Position numbers and translations under genes: made by a program. Positions 4,541 through 33,960 of a stretch of 64,000 nt of DNA are shown here, one piece after another. The notes below the pieces were generated by a model, which was not told where the DNA came from, did no database searches, and saw only the letters and a list, made by a program, of their open reading frames with translations. The DNA lies in NCBI GenBank assembly GCA_945901855.1, contig CAMDLT010000017.1, positions 1 through 64,000 of the forward strand, read 5' to 3'. How positions within the stretch are numbered: position 1 is the stretch's first letter; every line of letters begins with the position of its first letter. Source of the stretch: Asaia bogorensis (GTDB taxonomy: Bacteria > Pseudomonadota > Alphaproteobacteria > CACIAM-22H2).

Positions 4541-5358
4541 CGACCGCCTGGCTCACCGTCCGCCAGGGCAATGCGCCGCTCGTACTGAGTATGCCACATG
4601 TCGGCCATACGATTCCGGGCGACGTTGCGGGTGGTTTTGTTTCGGCTTGGCTTGCGGTCAAAGATACCGACTGGTGGATCGACCAGCTCTACGATTTCGC
4701 CGACGAGATCGACGCGACGGTGGTGCGTACTGCAATCTCGCGCAGCGCCATCGACGTCAATCGTGACCCTTCGGGCGCCTCGCTATATCCTGGCCAAGCG
4801 ACCACCTCGCTATGCCCGACGACCAGCTTCGACGGCGAAGCGCTCTACCGGGACGGTCATGAACCCGACGCAGCCGAGATCGAACGGCGTAAGGCGCTTT
4901 ATCTGATCCCCTACCATAGGGCCTTGGCAGACGAACTTGCCCGGCTGCGCAATACGCACAAAGCGGTCGTGCTTTACGACTGCCATTCAATCCGCTCGGC
5001 CGTACCGCGCCTGTTCGAAGGTTTGCTGCCGATTTTCAATATCGGTACGAACAGCGGAGCTTCAGCCGCTCCGGCGCTGTGCGCTGATATCGAAAGAATC
5101 TGCGCAGCCAGCGGCTATTCTTGGATCGCGAACGGACGTTTCAAGGGCGGCTACATCACAAGGCGCTTCGGCGAGCCTGTAAAGGGCGTGCATGCGGTAC
5201 AAATGGAACTCGCCTGCCGAGGCTATCTGCGCGAAACCCCCGGCCCAGTCAACGCAACTGACTGGCCGATCACATATGATTCCGCCTATGCCGAAACGAT
5301 TCGAACGCATTTAAAAAAGATTCTTCAAAACTGCATCGCGTTTGTCGCCAGCCAGTGA
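4537..5358 (+). CDS. hutG: N-formylglutamate amidohydrolase HutG
   Basis: 273 residues. It cleaves N-formyl-L-glutamate to glutamate and formate, the last step of the pathway that uses HutF. Family motifs include [11 protein letters not shown] near the N-terminus, [12 protein letters not shown] near residue 80 and [13 protein letters not shown] near residue 147, which carry the metal and substrate residues. The start overlaps the hutH stop by four bases, and the stop is followed closely by the hutU ribosome binding site. Confidence 0.95.
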
Positions 5359-29358: not shown

Positions 29359-29826
29359 ATGCCCACCGATTCGATCGCAGCGTTTCAAAAACCGAATCTT
29401 GCCGCACCATGCGTCGTGCGCAGGCTGCTCGTGCGTTGGGGCATGCGCCCGCACGACGAAGCGCCGCCCGAATGGGACGAATGGTTCGCGAACGTAATCG
29501 TGGGCGATCTGCGCGCGCGCACCTTCGATGCGGCCATCAGCCCCACGGGCACGCCAATCATCGACCGGGCAGGCTCCGAACAGCGCGACGTGCTGGACGA
29601 CATCAAACCCGGCTGCCCGCTCGACCAGGCGCTGGAACCCGTGCTGGGCGACCAGGCCGCCGCACTTGCCAAAGGCGTGTGCGAGCGCGCGCGCGACGGC
29701 CGCCCGCTATTCGTGGAAGTGCCGCCGCGCGCCGACATGGGCGGCTTTGCGCTGGCGTTTGTGCCGCTTCGCACGCGCTACGGCTTGCGCCTGACCGGAA
29801 TCGTGGCGGCCGCGGGGCCGTGCTGA
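29359..29826 (+). CDS. Hypothetical protein, 155 residues
   Basis: I do not recognise the family. The product is soluble, with a basic N-terminal quarter (VVRRLLVRWGMRPHDEAPPEWDEW) followed by an acidic centre (DVLDDIKPGCPLDQALEP) and a short glycine-rich end. Overall it could be a small sensory (PAS-like) fold, but this is not shown. It follows purB by 78 bases with a leader hairpin between. Composition matches neighbours. Just after its stop the accessory insertion begins. Confidence 0.6.
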   Translation: MPTDSIAAFQKPNLAAPCVVRRLLVRWGMRPHDEAPPEWDEWFANVIVGDLRARTFDAAISPTGTPIIDRAGSEQRDVLDDIKPGCPLDQALEPVLGDQAAALAKGVCERARDGRPLFVEVPPRADMGGFALAFVPLRTRYGLRLTGIVAAAGPC

Positions 29827-29850: not shown

Positions 29851-29867
29851 TCCATAATCTACTGCTT
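29851..29867 (+). repeat. Left direct repeat flanking the accessory insertion
   Basis: TCCATAATCTACTGCTT matches 33647-33663 at 16 of 17 positions. The right copy lies inside the 3' end of the DUF1476 gene. The pair brackets the restriction-modification genes and could be att-like ends or a duplicated target. Confidence 0.5.
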
Positions 29868-29999
29868 GGCCATCAGCGTCACCGGTCGCGCCACTCGCCA
29901 GTCAAACTCGAAAAATCTCCTCGACGCAACTGACCGGTTCAAGTAACACTTAATGTTGAAGGGGAGCAACTGCTTGATCGACATGAATCCTGCCGCTTG

Positions 30000-32900
30000 A
30001 TGCCAATTTTTGACCATCTCCTGCGCTATGCGCAGCGCATCCGCAATCTGCGCCGCGCACATGCGGCCGTACAAGAACCTGCCCTTGCGCCCGCCTTTCA
30101 AGAGCTGCTCGAAAGCACATTGGCAGAAATGCCGACTGGCGTCGGCCTTACTGTGGTTCCAGAGTTCGTAAATCCAGGGATTGGGCGGCCCGATATCGCA
30201 TTGCTACGCGCGGGAGCCCCGGCACGGGCCTTCGTTGAACTGAAAGCGCCCGACAAGCCGGCAAATCCAAATCGCTGGCGCCTTCCTCATGACAAACGTC
30301 AAGCCGAGCGGTTGCGGGAGTTGCGCTGCTGGAGCACGTCCAATTTCATCGATATGTTTCTGTTCGAACGCGCCGAGCAGCAAGCAACGGCGCGAATTGT
30401 TCCTGAGCAGGCGCTTGATCCGACTTGCGACGACACGCGGGCAGTCCGGCTCATACGCGCGCACGATGCGGCACCATTGCTTGCATTGATCGAGCGTCTT
30501 GGCGCTGCGGCGGGTCAGGAGCCGGTCGCGCGGGACGCCCAGCATCTCGCCCAATTGCTGGCACATTCGTCTCGATTTGTCCGCGGAATCATTCAGGACC
30601 GTCTGGCCGACTTGCGTGCTGCCAACGTGGCCGTCCACCCTCTGTTGGACGTGCACGCCGAATTTCAGACCGTACTCTACGCGCATCCCGAGGCGGGCGG
30701 TTATCCAGCGCAAGATTTCGATATACTGTTTTCCTCTGCCTTCGCACAAACGCTGGCCTTCGGGCTGCTCCTGGTGCGCGAGGGAAGCGGACATCCCGTC
30801 GATGCAGAGGCCTATCGGCGCATGCCTGACGAACACCCGTTGATGCGAACAGCGCTGCGCGTGTTGACCCAGGCAGAAATCCTCGATGCGGTGGGAATCG
30901 GCTTCACCGTTCTGCTCGACACTGTGAACAGCTTTGCCCCCGAAATTCTTGCGATCCGGCCCAGACATCCCGACCCGATCCTGTATTTCTACGAAGACTT
31001 CCTATCGACATTCGATCCGGCCGCACGGGAACGCCATGGCGTATACTTTACGCCGATCCAGGTCGTACGATTCATGACGGGCGCGCTTGACCGCGTTGCG
31101 CGTATCAACCTTGGGCTGAATAGTCTTCGCGATCCCGATCTGACAATACTCGACCCGGCCACGGGTACCGGCACCTTCCTGCTCGGCGTGGCCGAGCGGG
31201 TCCGCGACGAGGCTAACGCGGCAGGTGGGCAAGGTCTTGCCGATCTTGAGTTGCGCAATCTTGCAGGTCGGATGTTCGGCCTCGAACTTCTCGTCGGACC
31301 CTATGCGGTGGCTCACTACCGACTGCACCATACTTTGCGAGATCCGGCGGGCCCGGGGCATCGACCGGCTCTCCCACGACTGGGCGTTTACCTCGCAGAC
31401 ACGCTGGCCGAGCCCGGTGCGGCTGCTCCGCTCGGTCCGTTGGGGTTCGTGTCCGCCGGCATCACGCAGGAGCGCCGTGCCGCCGACCGGATCAAGGCGC
31501 AGCAGCCGATTCTAGCGATCCTCGGCAATCCACCCTACCGACGGCTGGAGGAAGGCGAAGACCAAACGTTGGTCGGACAGTGGATGAACGCGATCTGGGA
31601 TGATCTGAAACGGCCCGTGAGGGAGGCGAATCAAGGGAATCAGCTCAATACCTTTCCCGAGCTGTCCGTCGCTTTTTGGCGCTGGGCCATATGGAAAATC
31701 TTCGAAGCCGATGGCGCACCGCAGCGCGGCGTCGTGGTTTACATCACCAACCGCAAGTTCCTGACCGGCTGGCCGTATGCGGGTCTGCGGCAGATGATGC
31801 GCAATCGTTTCGACCGGATCGAGGTCATCGATCTGCGCGGCGATGTTCGGCGCGGACCGCGCGCGGGTATCGAGCGCGACGTGGGCGTCTTCGACATTCA
31901 GGTCGGCACAGCAATCACCATCGCAATCGCGGACGGCTCGCGCGCTGGACAACCGGCAGAAATAAGCTATCTCGACTCTTGGGCCGAGGGACATTTCTCG
32001 CGCGACGCCAAGCTTGAATGGCTGGAGAACGGTGCGGCCACAGGGACATTGCCCAACTCAATTGCGGTTGAGCGACAGGCGCTGGACGATTTCCGCCCGA
32101 GACCCTTCGACAATGGTGAGTGGCCGAGCCTGAAGGCGTGTTTCAATTTCATCCATAGTGGGGTTGAAACGAAGCGCGACCATCTGGTCTATGATGTCAG
32201 CCCAGATGCATTGACCAATCGGATCCAAACCTTCTTGGCCGCCCCGATAGCGGAGGCGCGCCAAGCCTTTAATGAGGTTGGCGCTCGTACCGCACAGGCG
32301 GCCCAAGCCATACCCTTCGATCCGAATTTGATCCAGCCGACTGCGTATCGACCGCTCGACACGCGCTTTCACTATCGCCATGCCGCTTACAATGATCGGC
32401 TCCGCCCGGACCTTCAGCATGTGTGGGGCGTCCAGAACATTTGCCTGTTTGCCCTGCCCTCAGGGACTGGCGCTGGACCGGCCGTTTGGTGCCCCCCCCA
32501 CCTTCCGGATAGACATGCGTTTCGCGGCAGCTACGGCGGCTATGTATTCCCACTTTATGATCGCCGCCCAGCATCAGCGGGTCCTAACGTTTCAGTCGCA
32601 CTGCTCAATGGCTTATCCGGCGCCTATGGGGTCGCGGTGACAGCAGAGGAAGCATTTAATACAATACTCTGTCTCCTCTCGGCGCAAAACTACTCCCTGA
32701 TTTTCGCCGAAGATCTGGAGGATGTCTTCCCGCACGTCCCGTTCCCGGCCGAGCACGCACTGTTCGTGCGGGCCGCCCAGCTCGGCGCCCGAATTCGCGC
32801 AATCCAAACATTCGATACTGCGCATCCGCCAGTCAGAACTGCAGACCCGAACTTCGCGAGGCTCGCTACAGCGCCGACAGCCGGCGCAGGCTTGGCGCCG

Positions 32901-33185
32901 TCCGAGCCAGACGGCTACCGCGTGACGCTTTGCGCCGACGGCTCAGGTCAGGTCGAGGGGCTACCGCCAGATGTTTGGCTTTTCACGGTGAGTGGTTACC
33001 CGGTGCTGAGCCGATGGCTGGAGGGCCGAGCCGGTCTGCCCGTCGACTTGGCGATGTTCACCGCATTCCGCGATGTTTCTGCGCGGATAGCGGAGCATAT
33101 TGATCTCGCCGCTCAGGCAGATACAATACTTCGCGAAGCATTGCTGAATACGCTGAACAGGGATGTTCTTGGACTCCCGGACTGA
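30000..33185 (+). CDS. Single-chain restriction-modification enzyme (type IIG / type ISP-like)
   Basis: 1061 residues. An N-terminal PD-(D/E)xK-type nuclease is suggested by GRPDIALL (near 65) and FVELKAP (near 80). An adenine-N6 methyltransferase follows with motif I LDPATGTGTFLLG (near 385) and motif IV NPPYR (near 510). The C-terminal half resembles the specificity region of type ISP enzymes (VIDLRGDVRRGPRAG … VGVFDIQVGTAI). No helicase domain lies between nuclease and methylase, unlike LlaGI-type ISP proteins. The ATG at 30000 is preferred over the adjacent TTG; no strong Shine-Dalgarno is seen. It lies between 17-base direct repeats with one small gene. Confidence 0.85.
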   Translation: MPIFDHLLRYAQRIRNLRRAHAAVQEPALAPAFQELLESTLAEMPTGVGLTVVPEFVNPGIGRPDIALLRAGAPARAFVELKAPDKPANPNRWRLPHDKRQAERLRELRCWSTSNFIDMFLFERAEQQATARIVPEQALDPTCDDTRAVRLIRAHDAAPLLALIERLGAAAGQEPVARDAQHLAQLLAHSSRFVRGIIQDRLADLRAANVAVHPLLDVHAEFQTVLYAHPEAGGYPAQDFDILFSSAFAQTLAFGLLLVREGSGHPVDAEAYRRMPDEHPLMRTALRVLTQAEILDAVGIGFTVLLDTVNSFAPEILAIRPRHPDPILYFYEDFLSTFDPAARERHGVYFTPIQVVRFMTGALDRVARINLGLNSLRDPDLTILDPATGTGTFLLGVAERVRDEANAAGGQGLADLELRNLAGRMFGLELLVGPYAVAHYRLHHTLRDPAGPGHRPALPRLGVYLADTLAEPGAAAPLGPLGFVSAGITQERRAADRIKAQQPILAILGNPPYRRLEEGEDQTLVGQWMNAIWDDLKRPVREANQGNQLNTFPELSVAFWRWAIWKIFEADGAPQRGVVVYITNRKFLTGWPYAGLRQMMRNRFDRIEVIDLRGDVRRGPRAGIERDVGVFDIQVGTAITIAIADGSRAGQPAEISYLDSWAEGHFSRDAKLEWLENGAATGTLPNSIAVERQALDDFRPRPFDNGEWPSLKACFNFIHSGVETKRDHLVYDVSPDALTNRIQTFLAAPIAEARQAFNEVGARTAQAAQAIPFDPNLIQPTAYRPLDTRFHYRHAAYNDRLRPDLQHVWGVQNICLFALPSGTGAGPAVWCPPHLPDRHAFRGSYGGYVFPLYDRRPASAGPNVSVALLNGLSGAYGVAVTAEEAFNTILCLLSAQNYSLIFAEDLEDVFPHVPFPAEHALFVRAAQLGARIRAIQTFDTAHPPVRTADPNFARLATAPTAGAGLAPSEPDGYRVTLCADGSGQVEGLPPDVWLFTVSGYPVLSRWLEGRAGLPVDLAMFTAFRDVSARIAEHIDLAAQADTILREALLNTLNRDVLGLPD

Positions 33186-33201
33186 AGAGAGACCACGCCT
33201 T

Positions 33202-33468
33202 ATGACTATCGATGCTCAGGGCAGCCTTTTCGGAGACGGTCGCATGGCCGCCCCTACCCGACCGTCGACGCCCGACCCGGAGGCCGTCCGTGAGCGACTG
33301 AGGCGGCTATTGGAAACGCTTCGAGGCGCCCAGACTATGCCGCTTTCCGAGAAAGATCTGCGCATGTGGCAGACTTTGGTGCCGACCATGACGCGGTGGC
33401 TGCCGGACGACGAGGCCGACGCAATTCGTTCCGAATTCGCCAGCGAAACGAAGCGTCTTTGTGGCTAG
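33202..33468 (+). CDS. Small protein downstream of the restriction-modification gene
   Basis: 88 residues, family not recognised. The start is MTIDAQGSLFGDG; a proline-rich stretch is followed by a long amphipathic, arginine-rich helix (EAVRERLRRLLETLR). A GAAGAGAG lies upstream of the ATG, and the gene starts 17 bases after the large gene, so they are probably one operon. The TAG stop is the first three bases of the MITE-like element, so the original C-terminus may have been longer. Confidence 0.6.
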   Translation: MTIDAQGSLFGDGRMAAPTRPSTPDPEAVRERLRRLLETLRGAQTMPLSEKDLRMWQTLVPTMTRWLPDDEADAIRSEFASETKRLCG

Positions 33469-33571
33469 AGCAAATTTCGTTCGCATAGGCTCACGGAACT
33501 GGCTCTAGGCTTTTTGTTTTGCCGCATTTCCCGAGTCGTCAGCCGATTCCGGCTGATTTGAAAATGCTCTA
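33466..33571. mobile_element. MITE-like element (106 bp)
   Basis: The ends are TAGAGCA … TGCTCTA, a 7-bp terminal inverted repeat that begins and ends with the TA expected from an IS630/mariner-type target. The inside has two further palindromes, GGCT…AGCC around CACGGAACT and CAGCC…GGCTG around GATTC, and no coding potential. Segments CGGAATCGGCT and GGCTCTAG also occur at the IS630 end at 131-146, suggesting a related transposase could move it. Confidence 0.6.
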
Positions 33572-33586
33572 AGCTCGCCAGCGCCG

Positions 33587-33604
33587 ATGCCGCCTCGGCA
33601 TTTT
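33587..33604 (+). terminator. Weak hairpin between MITE and DUF1476 gene
   Basis: ATGCCG-CCT-CGGCAT followed by TTTT. The stem is short, and it sits at the convergent end of the insertion and the DUF1476 gene. Confidence 0.3.
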
Positions 33605-33636
33605 CCATGGCTCCAAGCACCATCTGCCGGTAAGGC

Positions 33637-33960
33637 TTACGACTGCTCCATAATCTGCTGCTTCGCGACGGGCAGGAAATGCTCGAGCTGGGCTTTGATC
33701 TCGGCGACCGAGAGTGCGACGCCGCGCTGCTTTGCATCCTTCTCGATCTTTTCGATCACGTCGTCGTCGCCCGGCTTGTCGAAGTCGGCCGACACCACTT
33801 CCTTGGCATAGACATCGACCGCGTCGCCCGCGAGGCCGAACTTCGCTGCGACCCATTGGCCCACAAGCTTGTTGCGCCGCGCCGTCACCTTGAACTGCAG
33901 GTCCTGGTCGTGCTTGAACTTGTTCTCGAAACCTTTTTGGCGATCGTCGAATCCGCTCAT
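33637..33960 (-). CDS. F1-ATPase zeta-type inhibitor (DUF1476)
   Basis: 107 residues. The protein starts MSGFDDRQKGFENKFKHD, the signature of DUF1476 proteins. In Paracoccus denitrificans this is the zeta subunit, which binds F1-ATPase and blocks ATP hydrolysis. It is charged and helical with no signal peptide. The ATG at 33960 is chosen because it begins the conserved text; nine upstream in-frame residues are unrelated. Its 3' end contains the right copy of the direct repeat. Confidence 0.9.
   Translation of the reverse strand: MSGFDDRQKGFENKFKHDQDLQFKVTARRNKLVGQWVAAKFGLAGDAVDVYAKEVVSADFDKPGDDDVIEKIEKDAKQRGVALSVAEIKAQLEHFLPVAKQQIMEQS
33647..33663 (+). repeat. Right direct repeat, inside the 3' end of the DUF1476 gene
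   Basis: TCCATAATCTGCTGCTT, 16 of 17 identical to 29851-29867. On the minus strand it encodes KQQIME of the DUF1476 C-terminus, and the left copy encodes the corresponding KQ-stop-IMD. Confidence 0.5.

What the first reader, a model, noticed from the sequence alone, without database searches (positions are those of the whole stretch)
29851..33663. Compact restriction-modification insertion bounded by a 17-base direct repeat at the 3' end of the DUF1476 gene
TCCATAATCT(A/G)CTGCTT occurs at 29851-29867 and again at 33647-33663, the second inside the C-terminal codons (KQQIME) of the DUF1476 gene. Everything between is accessory: a single-chain R-M enzyme, its small partner and a MITE. The left copy reads KQ-stop-IMD on the minus strand, as if it were a decayed copy of the gene end. 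This looks like insertion at the end of a protein gene that left the gene intact, as some integrative elements do. No integrase is present.
Basis: partly seen in the sequence, partly recalled or inferred. Interest (0 to 1): 0.55.

Follow-up and report, generated by a model that had tools for sequence, protein, structure and literature searches.

The report
Restriction-enzyme unit inserted at gene end
A two-gene DNA-defence unit has inserted right behind a housekeeping gene of this bacterium, leaving that gene working and its old last few codons stranded on the far side, with no jumping enzyme of its own found; the kind of event is known, but this is a clean example.

Summary
The repeat is real: 29851-29867 and 33647-33663 match 16/17 (18/20 extended) and are its only copies in the genome. 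Same-genus relatives give the empty site: in 4 genomes the DUF1476 gene (ATPase inhibitor zeta, PF07345) and the 155-aa gene are adjacent and convergent, with one copy of the repeat. The window's left copy sits where the relatives' DUF1476 end sits, so it is most simply the displaced original gene end. Between the copies is a 3.8-kb insertion: a Type IIG-like R-M enzyme, a conserved small partner and a MITE. The enzyme is in none of 22 other family genomes except one distant 26% match.
A related cassette in Sphingobium terrigena has the same anatomy at lepA, again with empty sites. Two MAG cassettes carry longer gene-end repeats (79 bp, about 810 bp). The other 14 of 18 edge-tested cassettes show no convincing repeat. 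No tyrosine integrase was found in the window or close-clade loci.
Best reading: an R-M unit without its own integrase, inserted with duplication of a gene end, as reported for other R-M systems; a decayed site-specific element is the main rival.

The parts
29359..29826 (+). 155-aa gene, left (native) neighbour of the insertion
   Evidence: Homologues (57-84% over residues 17-155) lie convergent and next to DUF1476 in G002, G003, G004, G010; no Pfam, PADLOC or NCBIfam match
29851..29867 (-). left copy of the repeat: displaced original 3' end of the DUF1476 gene (gene sense on the minus strand), extends to about 29870
   Evidence: 18/20 to the right copy; 24 nt from the neighbour's stop against 17-20 nt in the closest relatives; 28/36 to the gene end of G004, 24/36 to the window's own gene end
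29868..29999 (.). left interior stretch of the insertion, upstream of the R-M gene
   Evidence: no sigma-70-like promoter reported here
30000..33185 (+). 1061-aa Type IIG-like restriction-modification enzyme (nuclease + N6-adenine methylase + specificity domain)
   Evidence: PADLOC PDLC03631 over 17-1010, E 3.3e-138; PF02384, PF18135; PD..ELK, DPATGTGTF and NPPY motifs; activity untested
33202..33468 (+). 88-aa small partner gene
   Evidence: Homologue downstream of the R-M gene in 18 of 18 close loci (L065-L084) whose downstream DNA is held; alignment of 18 sequences; predicted three helices, pLDDT 74.7
33466..33571 (.). MITE-like sequence, TA at both ends; its first bases form the small partner's stop codon
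   Evidence: one 73% copy elsewhere in the genome
33637..33960 (-). intact DUF1476 gene (PF07345, ATPase inhibitor subunit zeta)
   Evidence: E 1.5e-36
33647..33663 (-). right copy of the repeat, in the last codons of the intact DUF1476 gene

Best explanation
A two-gene R-M unit (Type IIG-like enzyme plus small partner, 3.8 kb with a later MITE) inserted at the last codons of the DUF1476 gene in this lineage. Shown: relatives keep the empty site with one copy of the repeat; the left copy lies where the native gene end belongs; the coding gene is intact; no tyrosine integrase was found. Inferred: the unit carries no transposition machinery and entered by host recombination or repair that duplicated, or recombined within, a short stretch of the gene's 3' end, the process described for other R-M systems as insertion with target duplication of variable length. 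Gene 3' ends are then what survives selection, because the host gene stays functional. Once in, the repeats could allow excision or amplification, and the unit would act in phage defence and resist loss (both inferred from the family).
For: Empty site in 4 relatives with the same two neighbours. Single near-exact repeat site in each of 6 relatives against two here. R-M gene confined to this genome in the family except a distant match. Same anatomy at lepA in Sphingobium terrigena: 11 of 19 relatives share its left flank, and in 8 of those the flank ends within 60 nt of the lepA end; the displaced copy keeps the native last codon and stop seen in four of them. Gene-end repeats of other length in L075 (77/79) and L080 (about 810 bp, 760 perfect) with only R-M plus small partner between. 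No tyrosine integrase found in the window or the close-clade loci scanned. Such insertion is on record for R-M systems (passages in PMC3874152, PMC3031569, PMC1643837).
Against: 14 of 18 edge-tested cassettes show no convincing repeat. The window's repeat is short (20-36 nt), while target duplications of the order of 100 bp are reported. In S. terrigena the intact lepA carries a last codon (Gly) seen in none of 19 relatives, as expected if the incoming DNA supplied the gene end rather than if the target was merely duplicated. lepA was used by three cassettes that are not sisters, which smells of site preference. L075 and L080 are MAG contigs without a verified empty site.
Confidence: 0.52

Rival explanations
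1. A decayed site-specific element (CIME-like): a tyrosine-recombinase element integrated at an att site formed by the 3' end of the DUF1476 gene, its attP restoring the gene end; the integrase was later lost or acts in trans. The two repeats are attL and attR.
For: Placement in the last codons with the gene end restored; 20-22 nt repeats in the window and in L076; a new last codon on the intact lepA of L076; repeated use of lepA; a distant homologue, L092, sits in an island with a tRNA-Thr, a duplicated tRNA 3' half and a 170-aa integrase fragment.
Against: No tyrosine integrase found in the window or in the close-clade loci (that profile missed the L092 fragment, so short remnants could escape it); several different target genes and repeats from about 20 to about 810 bp, unlike one integrase; nothing but R-M and small partner between the repeats.
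Confidence: 0.33
2. Transfer by ordinary homologous recombination: the cassette arrived with flanking chromosomal DNA of a related species that already had it beside DUF1476, and the left copy is a relic of that donor arrangement.
For: The long, partly converted lepA duplication in L080 looks like homologous recombination.
Against: No other family member searched has the cassette; the left copy sits in native position and near-native distance.
Confidence: 0.1
3. The left copy is a chance match and the cassette is a plain intergenic insertion.
For: In an unrestricted edge test 11 of 1500 random pairs score as high, and 4 of 60 shuffles in the 1200-bp test.
Against: Position-restricted test 0 of 3000 shuffles and 0 of 682 real pieces; right place, orientation and near-native distance against empty sites; the same anatomy with empty sites in L076.
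Confidence: 0.05

Closest known systems
R-M insertion with long target duplication (Nobusato et al. 2000, Furuta et al. 2010; seen here only through passages in citing papers PMC1643837, PMC3874152, PMC3031569)
   Same: R-M unit inserted between genes relative to an empty relative, bounded by a direct repeat of target sequence, no other mobility gene found.
   Different: Repeat here is about 20 nt (up to 36 nt with decay) and lies exactly at a gene's last codons; reported duplications are long and variable, of the order of 100 bp.
CIME (cis-mobilizable element; definition read in PMC5704250)
   Same: Flanked by att-like repeats at a gene 3' end, without integration or transfer genes.
   Different: No trace of a parent ICE or IME; related cassettes are equally bare; att function unproven.
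Type ISP R-M enzymes (LlaGI, LlaBIII)
   Same: Related adenine methylase region and Type_ISP_C specificity domain.
   Different: 1061 aa against 1406-1578 aa in the solved chains; no helicase domain found; alignment to them starts only at residue 327.
Type IIG R-M enzymes (PADLOC PDLC03631)
   Same: Nuclease motif, adenine methylase and specificity domain in one chain; matched over residues 17-1010.
   Different: A small partner gene lies directly downstream throughout the close clade.

Membership tests
R-M insertion with long target duplication | R-M unit present in one genome at a site that is empty in relatives | tested here: met
R-M insertion with long target duplication | direct repeat of target sequence on both sides | tested here: met
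R-M insertion with long target duplication | duplication is long (order of 100 bp) | tested here: inconclusive
   20 nt clear, up to 36 nt at 28/36 against G004; 79 and about 810 bp in L075 and L080
CIME | no integration or transfer genes between the repeats | tested here: met
   The only genes recognised between the repeats are the R-M enzyme and the small partner; no integrase by profile
CIME | repeats are functional attL/attR | not testable with these tools
   needs an excision assay
CIME | derived from an ICE or IME | not tested
   no parent element sought beyond integrase searches
Autonomous tyrosine-integrase element | encodes its integrase | tested here: not met
Type ISP R-M enzyme | helicase-like domain between nuclease and methylase (definition recalled) | tested here: not met
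   no helicase family at E up to 0.1 in Pfam; LlaBIII and LlaGI align only from residue 327
Type IIG R-M enzyme | nuclease, methylase and specificity region in one chain without helicase (definition recalled) | tested here: met
   (by sequence only; activity not tested)

The most novel reading that the evidence does not exclude
A clade of integrase-free R-M plus small-partner cassettes moves by a process of its own that aims at the terminal codons of conserved protein genes (DUF1476, a UDP-glucose-dehydrogenase gene, and lepA in lineages that are not sisters), with the restriction enzyme's own DNA breaks or the small partner driving the insertion and the cassette supplying a new last codon and stop to the host gene.
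Probability: 0.13. Interest if true: 0.72.

Novelty: new member of a known kind. Interest (0 to 1): 0.42.

Why it matters
It gives a clear before-and-after case of a defence unit arriving without a visible mobility enzyme, at the same kind of place (a gene's last codons) as in an unrelated genus. If the clade really spreads this way, it would help explain how defence genes move between distant alphaproteobacteria without phages or plasmids (close relatives were found in neither collection), and the flanking repeats make excision directly testable.

Tried and rejected
DUF1476 protein in viral contigs: none of 21 pattern matches encodes a relative. rpoH-end similarity in L108: within control (score 11, reached by 271 of 1500 pairs), and relatives do not share the flank; dropped. 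Empty sites for L075 and L080: relatives share no downstream flank, so these two rest on repeat length alone. L071 (score 13, reached by 34 of 1500): relatives uninformative. In the wider scan L079, L092, L047 and L110 also exceeded shuffles; L092 is the tRNA island, while the L079, L047 and L110 matches do not look like gene ends and were dropped; L082's 24-nt match likewise. Promoter-like sites near chance, terminator-like sites fewer than in shuffles. Rfam: nothing at gathering score in the window. Small partner: three-helix model (pLDDT 74.7, pTM 0.52), no PDB match at E up to 0.001. Papers: a search on lepA as integration site listed 12 of 4706 papers, none on that by title; one on such insertions in alphaproteobacteria found 0. 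I claim nothing about absence from print beyond.

Rows dropped before counts: the edge test used 18 loci (window, 16 of the 20 close loci L065-L084, and the more distant L108). Of the 20, L072 was left out as the same locus type as L073, L065 for its short contig, and L081 and L083 because their contigs end inside the R-M gene. In the genus, G001 and G008 had no DUF1476 match and G007 only a second, weaker family member; all three are drafts of 84-86% completeness. G006 has the gene, but no site within 2 mismatches of the repeat at its end.

Full report
Observation. The two copies lie at 29851-29867 and 33647-33663, 16/17 identical, 18/20 when extended. The right copy lies in the last codons of a 107-aa gene of family PF07345, ATPase inhibitor subunit zeta, the former DUF1476. 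Between the copies lie a 1061-aa R-M enzyme (30000-33185), an 88-aa gene (33202-33468) and a 106-bp MITE-like sequence (33466-33571) with one 73% copy elsewhere in the genome. A position-restricted control (gene end against the gap left of the R-M gene) gave 0 of 3000 shuffles and 0 of 682 real pieces at the observed score. Looser controls reached it in 11 of 1500 random window pairs, 1 of 306 cross-locus pairs and 4 of 60 shuffles with 1200-bp flanks.

Empty site. PF07345 was found in 32 of 41 genomes (own plus 40 relatives). I printed gene ends for 19 of the 30 loci returned; for those on the other strand only the flank is informative. In six same-genus genomes (G002, G003, G004, G005, G009, G010) the protein ends KQQIMEQ or KKQIMEQ plus one residue, and each has exactly one site at 0 or 1 mismatch to AAGCAGCAGATYATGGA, at this gene; the window's genome has two. 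In four of them (G002, G003, G004, G010) the next gene is a convergent homologue of the window's 155-aa gene. In G005 and G009 no homologue of it was found nearby, and in G006 purB follows directly and the gene end has no such site. Aligned to the empty sites, the window's left copy lies where the gene end lies, 24 nt from the neighbour's stop against 17-20 nt in the closest relatives. Over 36 nt it matches the gene end of G004 at 28 positions and the window's own gene end at 24. I read it as the displaced original gene end, decayed since. The R-M gene is in none of the other 22 family genomes searched, except a distant match in G003 (26% over residues 327-754).

Cargo. The enzyme matches PADLOC's Type IIG model PDLC03631 over residues 17-1010 (E 3.3e-138) and Pfam N6_Mtase and Type_ISP_C. 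A PD..ELK motif is present in all 21 aligned sequences; the two methylase motifs in 20 of 21, L082 being a truncated frame. Solved Type ISP enzymes LlaBIII and LlaGI align only from residue 327 on and no helicase domain was found, so I call it Type IIG-like. The small gene has a homologue downstream in 18 of 18 close loci whose downstream DNA is held. It is predicted as three helices at moderate confidence without a meaningful PDB match. In the window the MITE's first bases form the small gene's stop codon.

Relatives of the cassette. 44 of 385 genomes of the class (own included) match the enzyme, mostly distantly. A scan of species genomes gave 54 loci, 20 of them (L065-L084) at 54-73% identity. 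Plasmid records held only matches under 60% identity, phage records two partial ones. The close cassettes stand at different genes. Family scans confirm lepA next to the cassette in L076 (Sphingobium terrigena), L080 (Novosphingobium MAG) and L083 (Caulobacter vibrioides DSM 9893), a nucleotide-sugar (UDP-glucose) dehydrogenase in L075, smc in L068, rpoH in L108, rimO in L079 and a DnaJ-domain protein in L069. In the tree of R-M proteins the three lepA cassettes are not sisters: L080 groups with L081 and L074, L083 with L073.

Repeats around relatives. L075 repeats 79 nt of its gene end at 77/79; L080 repeats about 810 bp of lepA, 760 of them perfect. In L076 a 22-nt stretch left of the R-M gene matches the lepA end at 18/22. 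By score alone that is within control (97 of 1500 at 12 or more), but the genus decides it: all 41 genomes searched had a match, and of the 19 relatives I compared (L276-L294) 11 share the L076 left flank over about 400 nt; in 8 of these it ends within 60 nt of the lepA end. In L276, L278, L279 and L285 the last codons and stop are the same as in the L076 left copy. The intact lepA of L076 ends in a glycine codon that none of the 19 relatives has; its stop TAG occurs in 3 of them. So the displaced native end is seen twice with empty sites, in the window and in L076. Against a general rule: in the 18-locus edge test L075 stands far above every control and the window at 15; L071 has 13, L076 and L080 have 12 (the long L080 repeat lies partly outside the tested edges), the other 13 have 11 or less. 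L071 and L108 could not be confirmed with relatives.

Integrases. The own genome has six PF00589 matches, none on the window's contig. A profile built from 20 integrases found none in the window or in the close loci (L034-L036, L065-L084) or L108, but found them in five distant actinobacterial loci. It missed a 170-aa Phage_integrase fragment in L092 that Pfam recognises, so short remnants could escape it; flanks of some loci are short. In L092, a distant homologue, the cassette lies beside a tRNA-Thr whose 3' half is repeated on the far side: there a true integrase island is likely.

Mechanism. Shown: insertion at the last codons of a gene, gene kept intact, native end displaced, no tyrosine integrase found. 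Inferred: how it entered. Varying targets and repeat lengths and the bare R-M content favour the insertion with target duplication reported for R-M systems (passages read in PMC3874152, PMC3031569 and PMC1643837; the primary papers were not read). The exact placing at gene ends, the new last codon in L076 and the reuse of lepA favour an att-like site of a lost or trans-acting recombinase, for which CIME is the nearest name (passage in PMC5704250). I put these at 0.52 and 0.33.

Verdict. As a kind it is known. The clean before-and-after picture, and its repetition at lepA in another genus, make it a modestly interesting case.

Noticed in passing
33466-33571: The MITE-like sequence (TA at both ends, TAGAGC.../...GCTCTA) starts at the small partner's stop codon and so seems to have trimmed the end of that protein (ends RLCG against RL plus two or more residues, often KAA, in most relatives).
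   Followed up: partly
L092 2650-8510: Distant R-M homologue in a Thermoleophilia MAG lies in an island bounded by a tRNA-Thr and a repeat of its 3' half, with a truncated Phage_integrase gene.
   Followed up: partly
L295 1941-2160 and 2555 onwards: Another Sphingobium genome (G449) has a decayed second copy of about 220 bp of the lepA 3' end near lepA, with an IS256-like (name recalled) transposase beyond it.
   Followed up: no
L276 about 980-1500: In the closest relative of S. terrigena (G458) about 500 bp lie between lepA and the shared flank, bounded by a short repeat GGATCGATCA (read): the lepA end may be a general insertion spot.
   Followed up: no
L080 5031-5916 and 9466-10310: The lepA repeat is perfect over 760 bp but diverges at both edges, as if gene conversion had evened out the middle; a MAG contig, so an assembly chimera is possible.
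   Followed up: partly
L036 (G203:C1:4015232-4017834): A near relative of the enzyme (77% over residues 1-453) is in two pieces without residues 454-616, probably a decaying copy.
   Followed up: no
5007-5078: ARAGORN calls a 72-nt tRNA-SeC here, short for such a tRNA (recalled), so possibly a false call.
   Followed up: no
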